From NCBI GenBank assembly GCA_002748705.1, contig PDSZ01000003.1, forward strand, positions 1-9,128: a stretch of DNA of 9,128 nt. Reading direction: 5' to 3'. The stretch is from Candidatus Fermentibacterota bacterium (GTDB lineage Bacteria > Fermentibacterota > Fermentibacteria > Fermentibacterales > Fermentibacteraceae). The notes under the pieces were generated by a model, which was not told where the DNA came from, did no database searches, and saw only the letters and a program-made list of their open reading frames with translations. Positions 1 to 9,128 of this stretch are shown one piece after another. How positions within the stretch are numbered: the stretch's first letter is position 1; every line of letters begins with the position of its first letter. The translations under genes and the position numbers were made by a program.

Positions 1-466
1 ACCGGCCTTTATTCACAAAGCCTCCATCATCACTGGAAGACGATTCATCATCTCTGTGGCGCTTGCGGGCGGCCAGGAGGATTCTCTCGTTTATCTCAGC
101 TATGGCCTGTGCGGGAAATCTCTTCCTGAACCTGCAAAGCTGTGACTGATCCAACGGAGGCTTGATCTGGAACTCCTGCAATCCTAAGAACCACTGGAGG
201 TAAGGATTCTCTCTGATCGTGTCCACTGTCTCCCTGTCTGTCAGACCAAGTTTCTCCTGGATCAGTATGGAACCGAACGCGAATCTGCCGGGGAGGGCTC
301 GCTGTCCTTCTTTCTTTCTCCCGAGACTTCGAAGATAAACTTCTTCCACGAAATCCCAGGGAACCAGCTTTGCCAGCTTGACCCATCTGTTCTCAGTATC
401 CAGCGGTGTCCTGAATGGAGTCTTGAAGGCCTCAATTTCCAACTGACGGTTGTTATGCTGATACAA
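1..466 (-). CDS. IS5-family transposase, N-terminal part, cut by window edge
   Basis: The first 155 codons of the transposase are visible and identical to the first 155 of the right copy. The start is taken as a TTG codon (466-464) because a GGAG ribosome site lies six bases upstream, no ATG lies nearby in frame, and the resulting N-terminus (LYQHNNRQLEIEAF) matches the MYQ-type starts common in this family. The visible part is the DUF772-like N-terminal domain, with the signatures ENRWVKLAKLVPW (about residues 25-37), IQEKLGLTDRETVD and IRENPYLQWFLGL. The window ends just before the first catalytic aspartate (D159 in the other copy). Nothing visible suggests that this copy is broken. Confidence 0.85.
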   Translation of the reverse strand, partial: MYQHNNRQLEIEAFKTPFRTPLDTENRWVKLAKLVPWDFVEEVYLRSLGRKKEGQRALPGRFAFGSILIQEKLGLTDRETVDTIRENPYLQWFLGLQEFQIKPPLDQSQLCRFRKRFPAQAIAEINERILLAARKRHRDDESSSSDDGGFVNKGR

Positions 467-584
467 TTGAATCTCCAGGTGCAAGGGTTTTGAGCAAATG
501 TGCTCATATTGCGTGCATTTCTATGCACCTAATATCCCCTCGTTCCGTTGCGCTGTAAAGGTTTAAAGCTTCAGCATCAAGCCC
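1..584 (-). mobile_element. IS5-like insertion sequence, 5' part (left copy)
   Basis: This stretch is the reverse complement of 8117-8700, base x pairing with base 8701-x. The two copies differ at only three places: 536/8165, 542/8159 and 552/8149. Homology stops at 584, so 584 is taken as the transposase-proximal end of the element. The rest lies beyond the left edge. The element contains a 118-base leader and the start of a DDE transposase reading leftward. It faces away from the second copy, so the 7.5 kb between them is bracketed by inverted copies. The family assignment rests on the encoded protein. The end is inferred from loss of similarity, since no target duplication can be seen. Confidence 0.85.
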
Positions 585-600
585 TATTTAGGGCTTGATG
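575..600. repeat. Perfect 10-bp inverted repeat at the inner edge of the left IS
   Basis: CATCAAGCCC (575-584) is followed by the six-base spacer TATTTA and then its exact reverse complement GGGCTTGATG (591-600). The left arm is the terminal ten bases of the IS. The right arm lies outside the IS and points the opposite way. It could be a hairpin at the end of the cluster, a relic of a second IS end, or a target resembling the IS end. No run of T follows either arm closely, so it is a poor classical terminator. The right IS copy has no such second arm. Confidence 0.7.
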
Positions 601-670: not shown

Positions 671-1789
671 TCAGTAACTGCCGTAAGCAGGACAGGTGTT
701 GCAGTCAAGGGTGCTGCAGCCTGCGTCGCTTGTGAGCAGGAAAGTGAAGCCGGAGTTGGGATCACACCTGAAACTGTACCTGGAAAGAAACTGGTAGATT
801 ATACCTGCTCTTTCCATGGTGTACGGCTCATACTCAATGGCGAAGAGTCTGAACCGCTGCTCTTCAGCAGCATTGTTGACCAGCTCCTGCCAGGGCTGGA
901 GTTCTTCTTCAGAGCGGAAGTCCATCCACCATGGAGCAATGACACCTGAGAGAGGGGGTATGCTGGCCAGCGCATTTTCCCAGGAGTTTTCTTCTGCTTC
1001 TACCAGTACAAACACCGGGCCACCAGCATCTTCCAGATCATTGAACATTTCTGATCCTTTATCGCCTTCCACTTCAGGGAAAGTCAGAATGTAAAGCGAA
1101 TCCTGTTCAATAGCATTGAAAATGGTAGCAGTTTCTCTTGCTCCAGGCTGTTCTATAAGAACTTTCCTTGGGGAGAAAAAGTGAGATGCAAGCCCTCTGA
1201 CTCCGATAATGGTGAAGTAGACTGCTACGAAGATAGCTGCATATCGAGCTACGCTGTTAAGCCACTGTTTGTTGCTGAATAGACCGAACACAGCGAATGG
1301 AATCATGTAGATAGAAGTACCTATGAAGAATCCTGAAAAAAGAAGCGCACCACTAAAGGCGCCGCTGGACTCAAATGCACTTGTCATTGCAATGAGGAAT
1401 GCAGGGCAAACTGAGAAGCCTGTGAGAATTCCCAGAAGTATCGGGCTTTTTGTGAACTGCATCCATTTGGGGATATTACAGCCTTTGCAGGTTTTGTTAA
1501 TCCGCACTACTGAAATTACCAGATAAACAGAGAAAAGAAGGTAGCCGCCAAAAGCAAGAGGAATTCTCAGTGAGGATGGAACATATCCACCTACAATCCC
1601 CATGATGGCTCCGAATCCTGCGTAGGATATGAACCGGCCAAGATTCAGAAGAAGGATTACATAAACAGACTGTTTTCCAGAGCGCTGTTCACTGAGAAGA
1701 TAGGAAAGGTAAATAGGACCGCATGAAGCCAGACATGAAATGCCTGTCGCAAGACCCAGACCTGCACCGTGAACCAAGCCGGAAAACAT
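671..1789 (-). CDS. CcdA/DsbD/UreH-like membrane redox protein with Cys-rich periplasmic tail
   Basis: This is a 372-residue membrane protein of the broad CcdA/DsbD transmembrane or UreH_2 (TauE/SafE-like) superfamily. ATG at 1789 is preferred over a TTG at 1810 because AGGAG lies seven bases upstream. Six hydrophobic helices lie at roughly 8-33, 43-68, 76-97, 115-140, 145-170 and 180-203. SCLASCGP (C19, C23) in helix 1 and VCPAF (C128) in helix 4 sit where CcdA/DsbD carry their electron-transferring cysteine pair, and NLGRFISYAGFGA is typical of the UreH-like branch. The loop between helices 3 and 4 is very basic and holds a CKGC motif (101-104), so it is probably cytoplasmic. This puts both termini outside. 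Residues 207-372 form an unrecognised soluble domain ending in C358, C363 and C366. Likely role: thiol or electron transfer across the inner membrane, perhaps to the exported ferredoxins encoded upstream. The substrate is unknown; a plain sulfite exporter is less likely given the cysteines. Confidence 0.72.
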   Translation of the reverse strand: MFSGLVHGAGLGLATGISCLASCGPIYLSYLLSEQRSGKQSVYVILLLNLGRFISYAGFGAIMGIVGGYVPSSLRIPLAFGGYLLFSVYLVISVVRINKTCKGCNIPKWMQFTKSPILLGILTGFSVCPAFLIAMTSAFESSGAFSGALLFSGFFIGTSIYMIPFAVFGLFSNKQWLNSVARYAAIFVAVYFTIIGVRGLASHFFSPRKVLIEQPGARETATIFNAIEQDSLYILTFPEVEGDKGSEMFNDLEDAGGPVFVLVEAEENSWENALASIPPLSGVIAPWWMDFRSEEELQPWQELVNNAAEEQRFRLFAIEYEPYTMERAGIIYQFLSRYSFRCDPNSGFTFLLTSDAGCSTLDCNTCPAYGSY

Positions 1790-1866: not shown

Positions 1867-3066
1867 TCAATGAGAAACAGGGTAGAACCCTATTCCTCCT
1901 CTGATTCGGCCCCATGCCTTATCGGAATTAAGATCAGAGGCCTCATGTTCATAGATAACAAAGGAGTTCAGGCCGTTGGACATTCTGAACTCTAGACCGC
2001 CGCCGATTATTTCTCTCACTCGGTAGCCTCCTGTGTTTATAACCGAACTGGGTCCGTACCACAGCTTGCCTGTAATAAGAGCAGACAGGCCGGAGTAGAG
2101 GCTTACTCTGCCTTCCATCTCTCCCAGTCTTGTGGTAACAGCAGACTGGGTAAACTGCCCTGTGAGTGTAACCGAAGATGGCTCATTTCCCCATCCTGCA
2201 AACTTGAACCTTGTTCGGAGAGCACCCTGGAATGGTCCTATGGCAGTAGCATCTTCATAGAAGTCCGCAGCCTGGGAAACTGTTACATTGAATGTAAGGT
2301 TTCTGGCTACATTCTGAACTGCTCTAAGCCTTGCTGTGAATCTTTCTGGAAGATCCATTCCTGTGTAATCCTGGCCATTGTAAAGAGAGTACTCTGCCTC
2401 GGCTCTGATGAAGGTCATTGCAGGAAATTTGGCAGGGGTATACCCTGCGGCTATATCCACCCTGGACCAGTTTTCATTGTAGTCATAAGAGTCCAGCTTT
2501 GTATTGTGGGCAAATCCGCCAACTGAAAGATAGGCGCCCAGTGGAGTGTGCCAGAGAGCCTGGCCTCCGTACTGCACCTCGGACCACTCAGTATCTGTAT
2601 CTGAATCAAGAGCCGCAACATCCCTTACCCAGTATCTTCCAGTACCGGATACTTCAAGCACCTGTGGAACAGACCAGGACAGTGTCATAGCCGGACGAAC
2701 GGCAGAGTTTCTGTAACCGGCTCCTTCAGAGTGAGGGAGCACAACTGCAGAACTGTCCAAGTCAAGGTCTAACTGGATGTCAGGACTTATTCTGAAGTTT
2801 CCTAATCTGACAGAACCGGCAAGGTTGGATTCAAGCCTGCTGTTGTAGAACCTGTTCAGAGAAGCACCTTCTCCTGCTGTTGCCCAGTCTTCTGTGAGAA
2901 CAAGGTTCCAGTTTTCGCCGGTGAGTCTGAGACCTGCGGTGATGTCTTTTCTCAGGCCCTCACCGTAAACAATACTGTCGGAGTTGAAGTTTACCTGTGC
3001 GTACTCTTCAATTTGAAGAGCAAGTGCAGCTGTTGCTGAAAGAAGCATGATCATGAATGTTTTCAT
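1867..3066 (-). CDS. Putative outer-membrane beta-barrel protein of the ferredoxin cluster
   Basis: This is a 399-residue exported protein of unknown family. ATG at 3066 is chosen because it shares one base with the stop of the upstream ferredoxin (TGATG), has GGAAGGAG upstream, and begins a clear Sec signal peptide (MKTFMIMLLSATAALA). An open frame extends further upstream to 3111 but only overlaps the ferredoxin. The mature part is rich in alternating polar and hydrophobic stretches with aromatic girdles, such as SVTLTGQFTQSAV, GRVSLYSGLSALITGKLWYG and SFVIYEHEAS. It ends in GIGFYPVSH, all as expected for an outer-membrane barrel. There is no cysteine anywhere, in sharp contrast to its Cys-rich neighbours, so it does not bind clusters itself. 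By position it could be the pore or anchor for the exported ferredoxins. A periplasmic beta-rich protein is the alternative. Confidence 0.68.
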   Translation of the reverse strand: MKTFMIMLLSATAALALQIEEYAQVNFNSDSIVYGEGLRKDITAGLRLTGENWNLVLTEDWATAGEGASLNRFYNSRLESNLAGSVRLGNFRISPDIQLDLDLDSSAVVLPHSEGAGYRNSAVRPAMTLSWSVPQVLEVSGTGRYWVRDVAALDSDTDTEWSEVQYGGQALWHTPLGAYLSVGGFAHNTKLDSYDYNENWSRVDIAAGYTPAKFPAMTFIRAEAEYSLYNGQDYTGMDLPERFTARLRAVQNVARNLTFNVTVSQAADFYEDATAIGPFQGALRTRFKFAGWGNEPSSVTLTGQFTQSAVTTRLGEMEGRVSLYSGLSALITGKLWYGPSSVINTGGYRVREIIGGGLEFRMSNGLNSFVIYEHEASDLNSDKAWGRIRGGIGFYPVSH

Positions 3067-3314
3067 CAGTAGATCGCTCCTTCCGGGCAAGTTTCTATGC
3101 ATCTGTTGCACTGGTGGCAGAGGCCCGGGTTGATAACAGCATCACCGTCTATAACCTCAATGGCATTGTATGGGCAAACTTCTTCACACTCGCCGCATCC
3201 TATGCACCTGGCACGATCAATTGTAAGCATGGCGTTGGCCATTGGACTCTTGCAGGCAGCCAGAACAGCAAGCAAAGCAAGAACAGTAAGAATAACCTTA
3301 GTGGATCGCATCAT
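3066..3314 (-). CDS. Exported lipoprotein ferredoxin, 2x[4Fe-4S]
   Basis: This 82-residue protein has an N-terminal lipoprotein signal ending in the lipobox LAAC (C21), then a complete bacterial-type dicluster ferredoxin. Cluster motifs are C37-x2-C40-x2-C43-x3-C47-P and C66-x2-C69-x2-C72-x3-C76-P, the standard pair that binds two low-potential [4Fe-4S] clusters. The residue after C21 is Lys, not Asp, which under E. coli Lol rules would allow outer-membrane sorting. No twin-arginine motif is present. The start overlaps the end of the upstream ferredoxin by 17 bases. Two adjacent ATGs (3314 and 3311) are possible, preceded by AGGGGGTG. The stop is fused to the barrel start (TGATG), implying coupled translation. 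Electron transfer outside the cytoplasm is the natural guess; the partners are inferred from context only. Confidence 0.85.
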   Translation of the reverse strand: MMRSTKVILTVLALLAVLAACKSPMANAMLTIDRARCIGCGECEEVCPYNAIEVIDGDAVINPGLCHQCNRCIETCPEGAIY

Positions 3315-3525
3315 AGGTACACACCCCCTGACACAGTCCGCAGCCGATGCAGGTTTCAGGGTCTATATGAGATGCCCCGTCCTCAATTGTTATTGCTCCA
3401 ACAGGACATACTGCTTCACAGTCTTTGCAGCCGCAGCATTTATCCGGCTCAACCCAGTATCTGGTTCCTGCAGCGGCTGCTGCAACGAGAACCAGCACAA
3501 GGATCAACATCCCCTTTTTAAGCAT
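3298..3525 (-). CDS. Exported small ferredoxin, 2x[4Fe-4S]
   Basis: This 75-residue protein has a Sec-type signal peptide (MLKKGMLILVLVLVAAAAAG), or an uncleaved N-terminal anchor, joined almost directly to a dicluster ferredoxin. The motifs are C30-x2-C33-x2-C36-x3-C40-P and C59-x2-C62-x2-C65-x3-C69, the last followed by Thr rather than the usual Pro. An extra cysteine, C31, neighbours the first ligand. There is no lipobox and no twin-arginine motif. Its ATG shares one base with the stop of the preceding gene (TGATG), and GAGGAGG inside that gene's last codons is its ribosome site. It is the smallest member of the set, with hardly any sequence beyond the signal and the ferredoxin fold. Confidence 0.85.
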   Translation of the reverse strand: MLKKGMLILVLVLVAAAAAGTRYWVEPDKCCGCKDCEAVCPVGAITIEDGASHIDPETCIGCGLCQGVCTYDAIH

Positions 3526-3956
3526 CAGTCCTCCTCAAAACCTTCCTGAAGCAGGGTCTCGTTGCCTTCAGCATCTATACCGTAAAGTTCACAAACTGCA
3601 GAATCAGAGGGGAAGATTGTTCCCACTGGACATGTTCCTGCGCAGATTCCACAGTTGATGCAGAGTTCAGGATCAATTACAGCCTTGTTGTTATCATCCA
3701 TGGAGATGGCCTGAACAGGGCATGCGTTGACGCAAAGCTGGCAGCTGACACAGCCTTCAGGTGCCACGAAGTAGGAGTCTTTGAGTTCTATTGTTCCTGG
3801 AAAAACTCCGTCGACAGCTTCAACCACTGCAAGAACAGCTCCCTGAGCCCTTACTTCAAGGGTAGAGTAGTCCTCCGGCATACATTCGGTGTCAATAACA
3901 AGCGAGCCTGCAGCTGCACTGAGGGCAAAGGCTGATACAAGTAGAATGTTTTTCAT
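3525..3956 (-). CDS. Exported ferredoxin with N-terminal extension, 2x[4Fe-4S]
   Basis: This 143-residue protein starts with a Sec signal peptide (MKNILLVSAFALSAAAG) followed by about 50 residues of unrecognised sequence containing C25. A dicluster ferredoxin domain then spans about residues 66-112, with C69-x2-C72-x2-C75-x3-C79-P and C99-x2-C102-x2-C105-x3-C109-P. A further cysteine, C122, lies in the acidic C-terminal tail, which ends FEED. C25 and C122 are outside the cluster motifs and could form a disulfide or bind something else. It has an AAAGGA ribosome site, begins 22 bases after the upstream lipoprotein gene, and is coupled by TGATG to the next ferredoxin. Export is supported by the signal; the electron partners are unknown. 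Confidence 0.83.
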   Translation of the reverse strand: MKNILLVSAFALSAAAGSLVIDTECMPEDYSTLEVRAQGAVLAVVEAVDGVFPGTIELKDSYFVAPEGCVSCQLCVNACPVQAISMDDNNKAVIDPELCINCGICAGTCPVGTIFPSDSAVCELYGIDAEGNETLLQEGFEED

Positions 3957-3978
3957 GTTTTTCCTTTCCCCCTGTCAG

Positions 3979-4986
3979 TCAGGGTCTTTCAGGATAGGGA
4001 TATTCAGGCTCCCAATCTGCTGGCACAACTCTCTTCTTGAATGACAGGAATCCCCAACCGAGACTGCTATCCGGATTAATTCTTCCCTCGTAGTTCCAGC
4101 ACTCAAGGAAGCACTGACCACAGCTGATGCACTGGTCATAATCTATATAGACCATGTCTATTATAGGGCCGTACGGAATAGTGTCTGTACCCACTACGTA
4201 TCCCTCATCCTGCCAGATTGCATCAACCGGACATCCTGGGCCTGCCCAGATTGTACGATCCTTATCTCTCCAGTCATTGAGCACATAACAACCACCGTAG
4301 CAACTTACAGAATCTTCCCGATCGCTGCAGCGTTGGCACTGCTGAAACCCAGTAGAGGTACCAAGAGACTCATGGGCATTGAAATAGATCAGCTTGAAAG
4401 CTTCATCTGCAACAGAGATGTCATCAGCAGGATCATCCTCACCGTAGAAACTCCTTATGCCGAAATAGTATCCTTTGTTGAATCTTGTTCCTGAAATTGC
4501 ATCAACAGGACAGGCATCCTGACACTGACCACAGGCAGTGCAGAGGTCATAGTCAATAACAGCAACACCCCCCTGAACAGTTATAGCATTCATCGGGCAT
4601 GCCTGCTGGCAAAGACCGCAACCGATACACGGTTCTGCTTCGACCTGTACCTGAACGAATACATCAGCAGTGTCTGCAGGCGCATTTACCGTTGTCATAA
4701 AGGTTGCGTCATTCCAGTTATCCGTTGTGATTGGTTCCTGTGATGCCCTTATCTCATAAAAAGCAGCTTGGGGGTCTTCTGTCCATCGCAGAGTGAACGC
4801 GGAGAACTCACCCAATCTATACCCCCAGGCAGGTACAACCACGCCTGAAGTAAAGTCTTCCTGTACTATCAAGTCCCCCTGAGTCACAGACGAGGGAGTC
4901 AGGGGGCTCTCTCCCTCCGTAATACATGCAGCGCCAGCTGCGAAAAGACATACAGCGATGACTGCCATCAACTGTTTTTTCTTCAT
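3979..4986 (-). CDS. Lipoprotein with ferredoxin domain inserted in an Fn3-like fold, plus second Fe-S region
   Basis: This is a 335-residue protein. ATG at 4986 is chosen over an upstream ATG at 5064 because GGAGGT lies four bases before it and it begins a clean signal ending GAAC (C21), a possible lipobox. Residues about 60-100 (FTLRWTEDP, FYEIRASQEPITTDNWNDAT) resemble the first strands of a fibronectin type III domain. GTRFNKGYYFGIRSFYGED (about 166-184) resembles its last strands. Between them sits a full dicluster ferredoxin: C120, C123, C126, C130-P and C149, C152, C155, C159-P. A second Cys-rich region follows: C217, C220, C229, C233 and C252-PVDAI, then C286-x2-C289-x2-C292-x3-C296. 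The protein could hold up to four clusters. It is the first and largest gene of the cluster and may be its surface or scaffold component. The Fn3 reading comes from motif memory, not a profile search. Confidence 0.78.
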   Translation of the reverse strand: MKKKQLMAVIAVCLFAAGAACITEGESPLTPSSVTQGDLIVQEDFTSGVVVPAWGYRLGEFSAFTLRWTEDPQAAFYEIRASQEPITTDNWNDATFMTTVNAPADTADVFVQVQVEAEPCIGCGLCQQACPMNAITVQGGVAVIDYDLCTACGQCQDACPVDAISGTRFNKGYYFGIRSFYGEDDPADDISVADEAFKLIYFNAHESLGTSTGFQQCQRCSDREDSVSCYGGCYVLNDWRDKDRTIWAGPGCPVDAIWQDEGYVVGTDTIPYGPIIDMVYIDYDQCISCGQCFLECWNYEGRINPDSSLGWGFLSFKKRVVPADWEPEYPYPERP

Positions 4987-5147: not shown

Positions 5148-6365
5148 CTACTGGGAGATAACCAGCTTTCCGCTGATCGTTTCAGCTCCGGAGGAAGCCT
5201 GATAGACATAGATACCTCTGGGTACGGAAAAAGAGAAGTGTGCTTGACCGGCCTCAGTGCTGGCCTGAGAATTTTCAACCCTTCTTCCGGACATGTCGAA
5301 CAGTTCAACGGTAACAGTGGAGTTTTCAGCTCTGACTGTAAGCATACCAGTTCCCGTTGTGGCTGAAGCCTGCAGTCCACTGTGAGTATCAGTGCTTTCA
5401 TCGCTGATGATGCCGATTCCGCAACTGGTGTTTGAGTTACCAACTACATAGATGTCGGTCGTTGCTGTACCCCAGCTCGATACTCCATTCAGTTGTCTGG
5501 TGGTGCCTGAAAAAACTGAGTTCCAGCTAACTCCCAGATTGGTTGACCGGAGAATAGTTCCTGAACTTCCGACAGTGATGTATACCTCTTCACTGTTGCA
5601 ATCAGCGCTGTATGCCACAGCGTACAGGTTTGCCGTTGTGCCACTGGACACAGAAGACATGGGGTGGGGGTGGTTGATACGATAGATAGCACCTTTAGCA
5701 CCACATGCCACTATTGGCAGACCTCCACTGGCGACTTTGGTGGCTCCTCTGAACGCAGTGTTGCCCCCACTGTATGAAGGATAACCTGAGTAGTTTCCTG
5801 TACATGTGCCGTTGTTACCAAACGCCCAGTCCGGCAGTGTTCGACATCTGTGTCCAGCGAAGGCATACAGATCCTCTGTGGTTCCCGAACTTAACCATCC
5901 TTGCGTTGTGCTGTATAGCTGCCCATTTGCTCCGCCGAGAATAATCGCACTGGTAGAGTTTGGGTCTGTCCACAGGCAGTTGATAGTGAACGGAGCAGAT
6001 GTTGCTATATGCCAGGTGTTACCCCAGTCGGATGAGTAGAGGAGGCGTCCATTTTCTCCTCCTGCCCAGAATTTCGCGCCAGCTAACGTAAACATGACGG
6101 AATTGAGGTCCTCGGTGATCCCTGGAATGCTTTTATCTACCCAAACGTTCGTCTGGGAGTTTCGAACAAGGATTGTACCATTATCGCCAACAGCAACAGC
6201 GTTACCCAGTTTCCACGATGACACATCATTCAGATGCTGAGAGCAGTTGCTTGCCTCAGAAGTCCATGTCAGGCCTGCGTCTGTTGAGTGAAGTATTACA
6301 GCATCACCATATACTACTCCGCTGAAAAGAAGAAGTAGTGCAAGAACACCAGTTTTGAACCGCAT
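5148..6365 (-). CDS. Secreted Ycf48/BNR-like beta-propeller with T9SS-type C-terminal sorting domain
   Basis: This is a 405-residue secreted protein. The ATG at 6365 has GGAGGC five bases upstream and begins a Sec signal (MRFKTGVLALLLLFSGVVYG). Residues about 21-325 hold roughly seven beta-propeller repeats of the Ycf48/BNR kind: ILHSTDAGLTW, LNDV...AVGDNGTILVR, LNSV...AGGENGRLLYSSDWGNTW and LYAV...VGSSGTILRSTNLGVSW. The last 77 residues (from about 329) look like a type-IX-secretion sorting domain (VELFDMSGRRVE, FSVPRGIYVYQ, GKLVISQ). This indicates export through the outer membrane and surface attachment or release in FCB-group bacteria. Several cysteines in the blades may form disulfides. 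In cyanobacteria Ycf48 helps assemble photosystem II; here that role is not implied. It is paralogous to the divergent gene at 6540 and is followed by a strong terminator. Its biological role is unknown. Confidence 0.8.
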   Translation of the reverse strand: MRFKTGVLALLLLFSGVVYGDAVILHSTDAGLTWTSEASNCSQHLNDVSSWKLGNAVAVGDNGTILVRNSQTNVWVDKSIPGITEDLNSVMFTLAGAKFWAGGENGRLLYSSDWGNTWHIATSAPFTINCLWTDPNSTSAIILGGANGQLYSTTQGWLSSGTTEDLYAFAGHRCRTLPDWAFGNNGTCTGNYSGYPSYSGGNTAFRGATKVASGGLPIVACGAKGAIYRINHPHPMSSVSSGTTANLYAVAYSADCNSEEVYITVGSSGTILRSTNLGVSWNSVFSGTTRQLNGVSSWGTATTDIYVVGNSNTSCGIGIISDESTDTHSGLQASATTGTGMLTVRAENSTVTVELFDMSGRRVENSQASTEAGQAHFSFSVPRGIYVYQASSGAETISGKLVISQ

Positions 6366-6539: not shown

Positions 6540-7463
6540 ATGAGGTATTTCAAGCTGCTTTGTCTCTTTTTACCCTGTGCTCTTAGCGCTGAAGCCCTGA
6601 TCCTCAGGACGGAAGACGGAGGGATAACCTGGCAGAGAGAAGAGAGCAGGTGTTTCAATTCGCTGAATGCAGTTGCTGCTGACATGATTACCGATCTGAT
6701 GATAGCCGTAGGGGAGAGGGGAACTATTCTCCTTCGGGATGCTTCAGGTGTCTGGCAGGATGTGTCTCCTGCAGGGTTGACTGCTGACCTGAACTCGGTT
6801 GCCATTGCTGTTAATGGACTGTGCATGGTCTGCGGTGATGACGGAACTCTTCTTTCCTCATTTGATAGAGGCGAGAGCTGGAGGCTGTGGGATGAGTTCG
6901 ATTGCGGTGGGGTGGATCTTCTTTCAGTTAACTTTGCGCCTACATCTCCCGACCTGTTCGTCATTACAGGTGATGACGGTTTCACCCGTTTTTCAGAGGA
7001 CTGGTCCATTCAGTTCATCGATTCTGAACCCATCGTCGGATCATGCTTCAGGCTCTGCTCAGGGGCTCCCGAGTTCATTGCTTCAGCTTCAGGGCGGATG
7101 GTCTCAGATGATGCTGTTGCTGGAGAGACAGGTTTTCCGGTCAGGGGCGTTACTCCTGTGGTTTCAGGCGGAAGTCACCCTTTTCTTGTCGGAGAAGACG
7201 GCATGATGTCAACTGTGAACGGAAGTGCCCGAGAGGTTGTTCCTGGTCTGTCTGCTGATCTGAAATCAGTGAGTGCCCTGACCTGGGGCAGTGATTGCTG
7301 TGCTGTGGGAGAGGGCGGGACCATTCTTGTCTCTCATGATAACGGGTCAGACTGGGAGCTTCTGACGGGCATTGCATTGCGGGACCTGAATGGCGTCTGC
7401 AGTAATGGTTCCGGTACAGGATGTATCGTGGGTGATACAGTTCTGGATAGGATACTGCCCTGA
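6540..7463 (+). CDS. Secreted Ycf48/BNR-like beta-propeller, no sorting domain
   Basis: This is a 307-residue protein. ATG at 6540 is chosen over an upstream ATG at 6435 because GGAGGT sits three bases before it and it begins a normal Sec signal (MRYFKLLCLFLPCALSA). The mature part is a beta-propeller with about seven repeats: ILRTEDGGITW, LNAV...AVGERGTILLR, LNSV...CGDDGTLLSSFDRGESW, LKSV...AVGEGGTILVSHDNGSDW and LNGV...CIVGDTV. Its first two blades align closely with those of the divergent 405-residue protein, so the two are paralogues. Unlike that protein it ends straight after the propeller (TVLDRILP), with no type-IX sorting domain, and so probably stays in the periplasm. It is cysteine-rich for a propeller. 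The glycosylase gene follows after 11 bases, so the two are probably cotranscribed. Its role is unknown. Confidence 0.78.
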   Translation: MRYFKLLCLFLPCALSAEALILRTEDGGITWQREESRCFNSLNAVAADMITDLMIAVGERGTILLRDASGVWQDVSPAGLTADLNSVAIAVNGLCMVCGDDGTLLSSFDRGESWRLWDEFDCGGVDLLSVNFAPTSPDLFVITGDDGFTRFSEDWSIQFIDSEPIVGSCFRLCSGAPEFIASASGRMVSDDAVAGETGFPVRGVTPVVSGGSHPFLVGEDGMMSTVNGSAREVVPGLSADLKSVSALTWGSDCCAVGEGGTILVSHDNGSDWELLTGIALRDLNGVCSNGSGTGCIVGDTVLDRILP

Positions 7464-7474
7464 ACCTTTCGGAA

Positions 7475-8113
7475 ATGTACCACAGGCTGATGAAGAGGTT
7501 CGGTCCCAGAGGGTGGTGGCCTGGTGACTCTTCATTTGAACACTTCATAGGGTGCATTCTTGCCCAGAACACCAGATGGGACAGGGTGGAGCCTGTCATA
7601 GCGGCTCTGAAGGATAAGGGGCTGCTAGCACCATCGGAGTTCCTTTCTCTTCCTGAGGAAGAGCTTGCAGAGATGCTTCGCGGTTCAGGTACTTACAGAC
7701 GCAAGGCAGAGTATCTCAGAATTGCAGGAGAGTTTATGCTGTCTCTGGGCTGGAATGGAAGTGCAGATTCGGTTACCGAAGCCTCTGAGACCTTAAGAAA
7801 AAATCTGCTTGCTCTGAAGGGTATCGGCCCTGAAACATGTGACTGCATACTTCTCTATGTTCTCAAACGGCCATTTTTCGTGGTGGATGCCTACACGAAG
7901 CGTATATTGAGCAGACATGGTTTTTGCCGTGAAAGAGAATCCTATTCTGCTGTGCAGGAGCTTTTTCACAGAGAACTTGAGAGAAATACACAGGTATTCA
8001 ACGAGTATCACGCGCTGCTGGTAGAGTGCGGAAAGGTTTACTGCCGCCCGGTACCCCGATGTGACCAGTGCCCCCTTTGTGAAGAAGAAACCTGTATTAC
8101 CTGTGATAAGTAA
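7475..8113 (+). CDS. Endonuclease III-like HhH-GPD DNA glycosylase (MagIII-type)
   Basis: This 212-residue protein belongs to the endonuclease III / HhH-GPD superfamily, cytoplasmic base-excision-repair enzymes that remove damaged bases. The N-terminus FGPRGWWPGDSSFEHFIGCILAQNT (in part, from residue 9) is typical of the branch that includes Helicobacter MagIII, a 3-methyladenine glycosylase. The helix-hairpin-helix is LKGIGPETCD (114-123) and the catalytic aspartate is D138 in VVDAYTKRIL. Where E. coli Nth has its Schiff-base lysine, this protein has E120, so it is probably a monofunctional glycosylase without lyase activity. The C-terminal cysteines C190-x5-C196-x2-C199, with C202, C207 and C210 beyond, resemble the family's [4Fe-4S] loop, though spacing differs from Nth (x6, x2, x5). 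The ribosome site is weak. The IS begins three bases after the TAA stop, so the gene seems complete. Confidence 0.87.
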   Translation: MYHRLMKRFGPRGWWPGDSSFEHFIGCILAQNTRWDRVEPVIAALKDKGLLAPSEFLSLPEEELAEMLRGSGTYRRKAEYLRIAGEFMLSLGWNGSADSVTEASETLRKNLLALKGIGPETCDCILLYVLKRPFFVVDAYTKRILSRHGFCRERESYSAVQELFHRELERNTQVFNEYHALLVECGKVYCRPVPRCDQCPLCEEETCITCDK

Positions 8114-8173
8114 TTGGGGCTTGATGCTGAAGCTTTAAACCTTTACAGTGCAACGGAATGAGGGTATATTAGG

Positions 8174-8209
8174 TGCATAGAAATGCACGCAATATGAGCA
8201 CATTTGCTC
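8174..8209 (+). other. Two small hairpins in the IS leader
   Basis: TGCAT-AGAA-ATGCA (8174-8187) and GAGCA-CATT-TGCTC (8196-8209) are two adjacent five-base stems with four-base loops. They lie between the IS end and the transposase start and are repeated exactly in the left copy. Structures here could limit transposase translation from read-through transcripts, as known for other IS elements. That role is inferred and the stems are short. Confidence 0.35.
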
Positions 8210-8234
8210 AAAACCCTTGCACCTGGAGATTCAA

Positions 8235-9128
8235 TTGTATCAGCATAACAACCGTCAGTTGGAAATTGAGGCCTTCAAGACTCCATTCAGGACACCGCTG
8301 GATACTGAGAACAGATGGGTCAAGCTGGCAAAGCTGGTTCCCTGGGATTTCGTGGAAGAAGTTTATCTTCGAAGTCTCGGGAGAAAGAAAGAAGGACAGC
8401 GAGCCCTCCCCGGCAGATTCGCGTTCGGTTCCATACTGATCCAGGAGAAACTTGGTCTGACAGACAGGGAGACAGTGGACACGATCAGAGAGAATCCTTA
8501 CCTCCAGTGGTTCTTAGGATTGCAGGAGTTCCAGATCAAGCCTCCGTTGGATCAGTCACAGCTTTGCAGGTTCAGGAAGAGATTTCCCGCACAGGCCATA
8601 GCTGAGATAAACGAGAGAATCCTCCTGGCCGCCCGCAAGCGCCACAGAGATGATGAATCGTCTTCCAGTGATGATGGAGGCTTTGTGAATAAAGGCCGGT
8701 TGATCGTTGATGCAACAGCGACCCCTGCTGACATCACATTCCCCACAGACCTGAAACTGCTGAACAAGGGGCGAGAGCTGCTTGAGAAGATGGTTGATGT
8801 ACTCCATTCGGAACGGGAGCCGGGCAGCACAAAGCCCCGGACCTACCGGAAGAGAGCACGGAAAGCTTTCCTTAGCCTGCAGAAAACCAGACGGCCCGGC
8901 AGCAGAAAACTCAGAAAGGCAATGAGGAAGCAGCTTGGCTATGTGCGCAGGGATCTTGGTCATGTGGATGCCCTGCTTGATGAAGTTGGCTTTGGAGTAC
9001 TGGATCTGGATCTTTACAGAAAGCTGCTTGTCATCCGTGAGGTATACCGTCAGCAGCAAGAGATGTATGATGAGAGAAAGCGGACGATACCCCACCGCAT
9101 AGTAAGCATATCACAGCCGCATGTACGT
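8235..9128 (+). CDS. IS5-family DDE transposase, 298 codons visible, cut by window edge
   Basis: This is the transposase of the right IS copy, which catalyses cut-and-paste movement of the element. The TTG start at 8235 is supported by GGAG six bases upstream. The frame is open back to a TAG at 8178 but has no ATG there. After the DUF772-like N-terminal domain (about residues 10-130) comes a short acidic, serine-rich linker (DDESSSSDDGG). The start of the catalytic domain follows, with the first DDE aspartate in GRLIVDATATP (D159). A long basic insert rich in Arg and Lys spans about residues 195-250. The visible part ends at HRIVSISQPHVR, normally just ahead of the second catalytic aspartate in this group, so the other two acidic residues lie outside the window. 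No frameshift is seen. Confidence 0.88.
   Translation, partial: MYQHNNRQLEIEAFKTPFRTPLDTENRWVKLAKLVPWDFVEEVYLRSLGRKKEGQRALPGRFAFGSILIQEKLGLTDRETVDTIRENPYLQWFLGLQEFQIKPPLDQSQLCRFRKRFPAQAIAEINERILLAARKRHRDDESSSSDDGGFVNKGRLIVDATATPADITFPTDLKLLNKGRELLEKMVDVLHSEREPGSTKPRTYRKRARKAFLSLQKTRRPGSRKLRKAMRKQLGYVRRDLGHVDALLDEVGFGVLDLDLYRKLLVIREVYRQQQEMYDERKRTIPHRIVSISQPHVR

What the first reader, a model, noticed from the sequence alone, without database searches (positions are those of the whole stretch)
1867..4986. Cluster of four exported ferredoxins coupled to an outer-membrane barrel: possible iron-sulfur conduit
Five adjacent minus-strand genes encode four proteins with dicluster ferredoxin motifs, each behind a Sec or lipoprotein signal, and a Cys-free putative beta-barrel. 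Up to about ten [4Fe-4S] sites would lie outside the cytoplasm. Known trans-envelope conduits use multihaem cytochromes in a porin (MtrCAB-type). Here the same layout (barrel plus multi-cluster periplasmic and lipidated proteins) would be built from ferredoxins. Alternative readings are metal or sulfur sensing, or iron storage or handling. I recall no described system of this composition. The gene content is seen; the conduit idea is inference.
Basis: partly seen in the sequence, partly recalled or inferred. Interest (0 to 1): 0.87.

Follow-up and report, generated by a model that had tools for sequence, protein, structure and literature searches.

The report
Exported ferredoxin and outer-membrane barrel operon
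A fixed block of six genes in a little-known group of fermenting bacteria appears to export four iron-sulfur proteins alongside an outer-membrane pore and a membrane thiol carrier, which could be a haem-free way to move electrons across the cell envelope.

Summary
On the minus strand the window carries a lipoprotein with four [4Fe-4S] motif sets, two apparently Sec-exported two-cluster ferredoxins, a two-cluster ferredoxin lipoprotein and a Cys-free beta-barrel. In the phylum Fermentibacterota 36 of 42 genomes searched carry the barrel. In 28 of these all six genes lie in the same order on one contig; in 7 the run is cut at contig ends; in one (G011) the first gene lies on another contig. Nearly all cluster and lipobox cysteines are invariant. 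The barrel model, of modest confidence, matches only outer-membrane barrels in the 50 rows listed. CcmF/CcsA was found in 0 of 42 genomes, DsbB in 1, VKOR in 0: a cytochrome conduit is unlikely and exported thiols may stay reduced. TatC is in 36 of 42, yet the signals look Sec-type. Best reading: an envelope-spanning iron-sulfur electron relay kept metallated by its own thiol transporter. Clusters, surface location and electron transfer are inferred, not shown. Ten searches of open papers listed no such system.

The parts
3979..4986 (-). fdL: 335-aa lipoprotein; a 2[4Fe-4S] ferredoxin domain (about residues 112-167) that appears inserted in an Fn3-like beta-sandwich, followed by a second set of eight cluster-type cysteines
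3525..3956 (-). fdC: 143-aa 2[4Fe-4S] ferredoxin with a Sec-like signal
   Evidence: Pfam Fer4 E 4.3e-14; 7 of 8 cluster Cys columns 33/33, one 29/33; N-termini listed
3298..3525 (-). fdB: 75-aa small 2[4Fe-4S] ferredoxin with a Sec-like signal, mature part about 55 aa
   Evidence: Pfam Fer4 E 1.2e-14; 8 cluster Cys 34/34; signal list
3066..3314 (-). fdA: 82-aa lipoprotein 2[4Fe-4S] ferredoxin
   Evidence: Pfam Fer4 E 7.7e-18; lipobox Cys 35/35 and 8 cluster Cys 35/35 except one column 34/35
1867..3066 (-). outer-membrane beta-barrel, 399 aa with signal peptide, no Cys in the mature part, about 20 strands, no plug domain seen
671..1789 (-).
   Evidence: PF13386 E 1.3e-22, 81.1 bits against 24.9; Cys 26, 30, 108, 111, 135 in 37/37, 365 in 35/35, 370 and 373 in 36/36 rows with a residue there; charge pattern

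Best explanation
The six genes encode an envelope-spanning redox relay built from [4Fe-4S] ferredoxins. Two ferredoxins (fdC, fdB) are soluble in the periplasm; two (fdA, fdL) are lipid-anchored; the barrel sits in the outer membrane and gives the chain a way through or an anchor there, with the four-cluster fdL the likeliest outward-facing end. The CcdA-type protein passes reducing equivalents from the cytoplasm to the periplasmic side, which would keep the cluster-ligand cysteines of Sec-exported apo-ferredoxins reduced so that clusters can be built outside the cytoplasm, and might also feed electrons into the chain. The likely use is disposal of fermentation electrons to an outside acceptor or partner. 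Shown: genes, order, conservation, export-type N-termini, barrel fold class (by model), near-invariant cysteines, no CcmF/CcsA hit. Inferred: cluster loading, cell location, physical complex, electron flow and its direction.
For: Gene order L-C-B-A-barrel-DsbD2, one strand, on one contig in 28 of 36 carrier genomes, 7 more cut by contig ends, one partly displaced. DsbD_2 is found in 36 of 42 genomes, the same 36 that carry the barrel, and is missing from the same 6. Cluster cysteines are near-invariant while the barrel falls to 25-31% identity. Barrel fold. CcmF/CcsA family 0 of 42 with 9 of 14 controls positive; Paired_CXXCH 1 of 42, control 1 of 14. DsbB 1 of 42, a weak hit with two stops, controls 6 of 14; VKOR 0 of 42, controls 3 of 14: two known disulfide-forming routes are lacking, so exported thiols may stay reduced. 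RnfC at E 2.3e-13 or better in 35 of 42, so low-potential electrons may be at hand. S. silens is described as a strictly anaerobic obligate fermenter with Rnf, no respiratory chain, a Gram-negative envelope and a partner role with sulfate reducers (PMC5763382, passages and section 10 seen).
Against: No spectroscopic, proteomic or electrochemical evidence. Sec export would deliver unfolded apo-protein, and I know of no cluster-assembly machinery outside the cytoplasm (recalled). No inner-membrane quinol or ferredoxin oxidase is in the operon; the only inner-membrane partner is a thiol carrier. The barrel model is of low confidence (only one of five models above pLDDT 36; Foldseek TM-scores 0.19-0.46) and no complex could be modelled. 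The second Cys set of fdL is in a poorly modelled part. Lipoprotein surface display is unknown. RR occurs in 8 of 33 fdB signals (4 fit a loose Tat core), in 1 of 33 fdC N-termini (L062) and in one fdL signal (L054), so Tat is not fully excluded. DsbA was not searched for.
Confidence: 0.45

Rival explanations
1. Iron, sulfide or iron-sulfur handling: the exported Cys-rich proteins bind or store iron and sulfide at the surface or periplasm and the barrel lets them or iron through; the thiol transporter recharges the cysteines.
For: The barrel model resembles TonB-dependent receptor barrels, many of them iron receptors; iron piracy from plant ferredoxin is known in Pectobacterium (PMC6793856, start of abstract seen); members come from sulfidic, anoxic places among others.
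Against: No plug domain is seen: strands start right after the signal and there is no Pfam hit. No TonB, protease, permease or ABC gene is among the six genes. Full dicluster ferredoxin motifs with near-invariant cysteines favour redox use.
Confidence: 0.2
2. A periplasmic reductase chain: the thiol transporter and ferredoxins supply electrons to a periplasmic or surface enzyme (for example a sulfur or disulfide reductase) coded elsewhere; the barrel only anchors or admits the substrate.
For: The DsbD2 protein has conserved Cys pairs in a positively charged loop, near its membrane parts and in the acidic C-terminal domain, a possible full thiol relay on its own; linkage of DsbD2 to the operon.
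Against: No catalytic subunit is among the six linked genes; genes farther out were not annotated in the relatives, so this is weak.
Confidence: 0.2
3. The cysteine motifs bind zinc, copper or another metal, or the proteins act as redox or metal sensors; no electron relay.
For: Sec export of apo-proteins makes other metals possible; three of the proteins are small.
Against: Complete CxxCxxCxxxC pairs, Pfam ferredoxin families and, for fdL, the ferredoxin fold; four such proteins with about ten sites exceed what a sensor needs (inference).
Confidence: 0.1
4. Export by Tat of folded, cluster-loaded ferredoxins, as for DmsB or HybA (recalled), so no cluster building outside is needed.
For: TatC in 36 of 42 genomes; RR in 8 of 33 fdB signals, 4 of them fitting a loose Tat core, in 1 of 33 fdC N-termini and in the L054 fdL signal.
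Against: RR in 0 of 35 fdA signals; fdB mostly has RK, KK or other pairs. Of the 7 fdL rows with RR nearby, six (L010, L055, L063, L068 and two in L069) read as AAGGAG- or GGAGG-type ribosome-binding sequence before the presumed start; only L054 has RR after it.
Confidence: 0.1

Closest known systems
Porin-cytochrome conduits (MtrCAB, PCC)
   Same: Outer-membrane barrel coded with apparently periplasmic and lipid-anchored multi-centre redox proteins; MtrB is among the Foldseek rows (6r2q_B, rank 10, TM-score 0.44 on the query), though so are many unrelated barrels.
   Different: No haem motif in the window's proteins, clusters instead; small ferredoxins in place of decahaem proteins; no CcmF/CcsA hit in the phylum.
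DsbD/CcdA thiol transporters
   Same: PF13386 above cut-off, with invariant Cys in the parts that correspond to the first and fourth helices (helix assignment by eye and recall).
   Different: Joined to an acidic C-terminal domain with three further conserved Cys; tied to ferredoxin genes rather than to cytochrome c maturation.
Tat-exported Fe-S subunits (DmsB, NrfC, HybA; recalled)
   Same: Multi-cluster ferredoxin-like proteins outside the cytoplasm.
   Different: Those travel folded by Tat with a catalytic partner (recalled); here mostly Sec-type and lipoprotein signals and no catalytic partner among the six genes.
2[4Fe-4S] clostridial-type ferredoxins
   Different: Exported, lipidated or joined to an Fn3-like domain.

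Membership tests
Porin-cytochrome conduit | Multihaem c-type cytochromes | tested here: not met
   No CXXCH in the window's six proteins by reading; CXXCH counts over families: 0 in 35 fdL, 33 fdC, 35 fdA and 40 barrel ORFs, 1 in 34 fdB and 8 in 38 DsbD2 ORFs; CcmF/CcsA 0 of 42
Porin-cytochrome conduit | Outer-membrane beta-barrel in the same operon | tested here: met
   model of modest confidence
Porin-cytochrome conduit | Redox protein inserted in the barrel and a surface-exposed lipoprotein | not testable with these tools
   No complex modelling or localisation
DsbD_2/CcdA | Family profile and membrane cysteines | tested here: met
   PF13386 81.1 bits against a cut-off of 24.9; Cys 26, 30, 135 in 37/37
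2[4Fe-4S] ferredoxin | Two CxxCxxCxxxC motifs and ferredoxin fold | tested here: met
   Motifs and Pfam for all four; fold modelled for fdL only; cluster binding itself not testable
Tat-exported Fe-S protein | Conserved twin-arginine signal | tested here: not met
   RR in 0/35 fdA and 8/33 fdB signals, 1/33 fdC N-termini and, after the presumed start, in one fdL (L054): present in some members, not conserved
TonB-dependent receptor | Plug domain in front of the barrel | tested here: not met
   No Pfam hit at E <= 1; strands begin at residue 18 of the model

The most novel reading that the evidence does not exclude
A complete cytoplasm-to-surface electron path without haem: thiols across the inner membrane, about ten [4Fe-4S] clusters assembled outside the cytoplasm on Sec-exported ferredoxins, and an outer-membrane barrel as the passage, used across a whole phylum of fermenters that appear unable to make c-type cytochromes.
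Probability: 0.35. Interest if true: 0.93.

Novelty: categorically new. Interest (0 to 1): 0.82.

Why it matters
In the passages of a 2025 review that I saw (PMC12203936), outer-membrane electron conduits are porins with a multihaem cytochrome inside. A ferredoxin-based one would show that electrons can leave a cell with an outer membrane without c-type haem, would mean that [4Fe-4S] clusters are built or kept outside the cytoplasm on Sec-exported proteins, and would give uncultured fermenters of seeps, sediments and digesters an overlooked route for trading electrons with sulfate reducers or methanogens.

Tried and rejected
Window's own genome: not held, so relatives were used. Homologue search with the 21-row barrel alignment A3: 31 rows, of which one new full-length member (P0128) and one fragment (P0129); only the 7,999 candidates sharing most words were scored, so it says little about other phyla; one search was capped in the same way (7,998). 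The species-genome scan used two conserved peptides and gave 12 loci from 62 matching stretches, near relatives, so restriction to Fermentibacterota is not shown. The lipoprotein search drops from family members at E 4.5e-30 to generic ferredoxins at 3.7e-18; the rows above that gap that carry an organism name are Ca. Sabulitectum, but most rows carry none. PDB sequence search of DsbD2: nothing at E <= 1. Rfam: nothing at gathering threshold. Literature: none of the ten searches listed such a system; the library holds open PMC papers only, and the Ca. Fermentibacter genome paper was not held. A Cloacimonadota paper was looked into for exported ferredoxins (PMC8542988, passages seen): nothing on them. 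Twin-arginine reading of RR before fdL starts in L010, L055, L063, L068 and L069: rejected, it is ribosome-binding sequence read in frame if the presumed starts hold. The T9SS-tail and BNR genes beside the operon: the glycosylase and BNR pair is found upstream in the window and in L001, L002, L003, L005, L008, L009 and L074, and the BNR gene alone in L072, which then ends; L010 and L011 lack it, and none of the 22 loci L050-L071, many of them short, shows the pair (L071 has the glycosylase only). I left them out.

The 6 of 42 genomes without the operon (G020, G021, G022, G024, G026, G032) may only be incomplete: TatC is also missing from 6 of 42, five of them other ones, and no completeness figures were given.
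Full report
WHAT IS THERE. The window is most likely a piece of a Fermentibacterota genome near Candidatus Sabulitectum: the one homologue of the barrel with an organism name is 69% identical and assigned to Ca. Sabulitectum sp., and the 12 loci from the species-genome scan are titled Sabulitectum, Fermentibacteraceae, Fermentibacteria or Hyd24-12. It ends in inverted copies of an insertion element, 1-590 against 8111-8700, 99% complementary, with a DUF772 transposase in the right-hand copy, so the contig was probably cut at a repeat. Spacings are 22, -1, -17, -1 and 77 bases, an operon by layout.

EXPORT. fdL and fdA have lipoboxes; fdB and fdC have hydrophobic N-termini. A lipobox pattern fits 33 of 35 fdA and 28 of 35 fdL ORFs. 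Of the other 7 fdL ORFs, 4 (L004, L007, L073 and one L050 ORF) are cut at a locus edge, L011 begins with an over-long upstream stretch, and the first L001 ORF and L072 carry a Cys that the pattern misses. One of the 28 counted, the second L001 ORF, is an internal piece, so its match is not a signal. RR is in 0 of 35 fdA and 8 of 33 fdB signals, 4 of the latter fitting a loose Tat core, and in 1 of 33 fdC N-termini (L062). Seven fdL rows have RR near the signal: six of them (L010, L055, L063, L068, twice L069) are ribosome-binding sequence before the presumed start, while in L054 it follows the start. TatC occurs in 36 of 42 genomes, so Tat is available yet a conserved Tat signal is not seen. 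No trained signal predictor was at hand.

THE SIXTH GENE. PF13386 at 81.1 bits. Cys 26, 30, 108, 111 and 135 are in 37 of 37 rows; 365 in 35 of 35 and 370 and 373 in 36 of 36 rows with a residue there. The 97-129 stretch is strongly positive (+5.2) and the 204-379 tail strongly negative (-16.4), which by the positive-inside rule puts the CxxC loop in the cytoplasm and the Cys-bearing tail outside. The helices themselves came out fragmented in that simple hydropathy scan, so the six-helix CcdA topology is taken from the family (recalled). If right, one protein holds a full thiol relay.

SPREAD AND LINKAGE. In the 42 Fermentibacterota genomes held, A1 finds the barrel in 35. A 36th, G011, has a divergent operon (fdC, fdB, fdA, barrel at 297 bits with the wider profile, DsbD2), with its fdL on another contig. 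Of the 35, 28 show all six genes in order and on one strand on one contig, some with fdL or DsbD2 cut by a contig end or with an ORF split (L001, L052); 7 (G007, G013, G023, G025, G030, G033, G035) show the part that their contigs hold, G013 and G033 on two contigs. DsbD_2 is in 36 of 42, the same 36 genomes, with one extra copy each in G002 and G038. Six genomes lack barrel, DsbD_2 and full-length fdL alike; this may be incompleteness. Tandem copies of fdL occur in L001 (split) and L069, and a contig-cut second copy in L050.

PHYSIOLOGICAL SETTING. CcmF/CcsA 0 of 42 with 9 of 14 controls positive, 8 over cut-off; Paired_CXXCH 1 of 42 (control 1 of 14, so a weak test); DsbB 1 of 42, weak and with stops (controls 6 of 14); VKOR 0 of 42 (controls 3 of 14); RnfC_N at E 2.3e-13 or better in 35 of 42, weaker hits in the other 7. 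S. silens is described as strictly anaerobic, obligately fermentative, with Rnf, no respiratory chain, a Gram-negative envelope, and a partner of sulfate reducers (PMC5763382; passages and section 10 seen). A digester study (PMC7382037, passages seen) discusses H2-independent electron transfer across 20 phyla; the passages seen do not say that Fermentibacterota do it, though a figure legend lists them among the taxa drawn.

HOW IT MAY WORK. The layout matches a trans-envelope relay: thiol carrier in the inner membrane, two soluble ferredoxins, two lipidated ones, a barrel. The phylum seems unable to make c-type cytochromes, so it could hardly build an Mtr-type conduit. The thiol carrier would solve a problem that the export route creates: Sec delivers unfolded apo-protein, so ligands must stay reduced until clusters form. 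It may also be a source of electrons. I put the relay reading at 0.45, iron or sulfide handling at 0.2, a periplasmic reductase chain at 0.2. Where cluster assembly outside the cytoplasm would come from is unexplained.

NOVELTY. Ten literature searches in the open PMC library listed no such system. The review passages seen treat outer-membrane conduits as porin plus multihaem cytochrome (PMC12203936). I therefore rate the composition as categorically new, with function still to be shown. Whether it occurs outside the phylum is open.

Noticed in passing
window 1-590 and 8111-8700: Inverted, 99% complementary copies of an insertion element, with a DUF772 transposase in the right-hand one, form both ends of the window, so the contig was probably cut at a repeat.
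   Followed up: partly
window 5148-6365 and 6540-7463: Two YCF48/BNR-like proteins, the first with a T9SS-type sorting tail; the second, with the glycosylase gene, lies divergently upstream of the operon in the window and in seven relatives' loci.
   Followed up: partly
window 7475-8113: HhH-GPD DNA glycosylase (PF00730) with a C-terminal Cys pattern that looks like a 4Fe-4S loop by eye.
   Followed up: no
L001:7003-8000, L069:4042-7024, L050:7722-8971: Tandem whole or cut copies of the four-cluster lipoprotein gene; the L001 extra copy is split over two frames.
   Followed up: partly
P0091, P0093, P0094, P0105, P0111, P0115, P0123: Multi-cluster ferredoxins, mostly with hydrophobic, signal- or anchor-like N-termini; P0105, P0111 and P0115 are named Cloacimonadota or Cloacimonadaceae.
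   Followed up: no
L079 (G011): The only carrier genome where fdL is seen not to be next to fdC: about 2.2 kb of contig continue past fdC without it, and fdL lies on another contig.
   Followed up: partly
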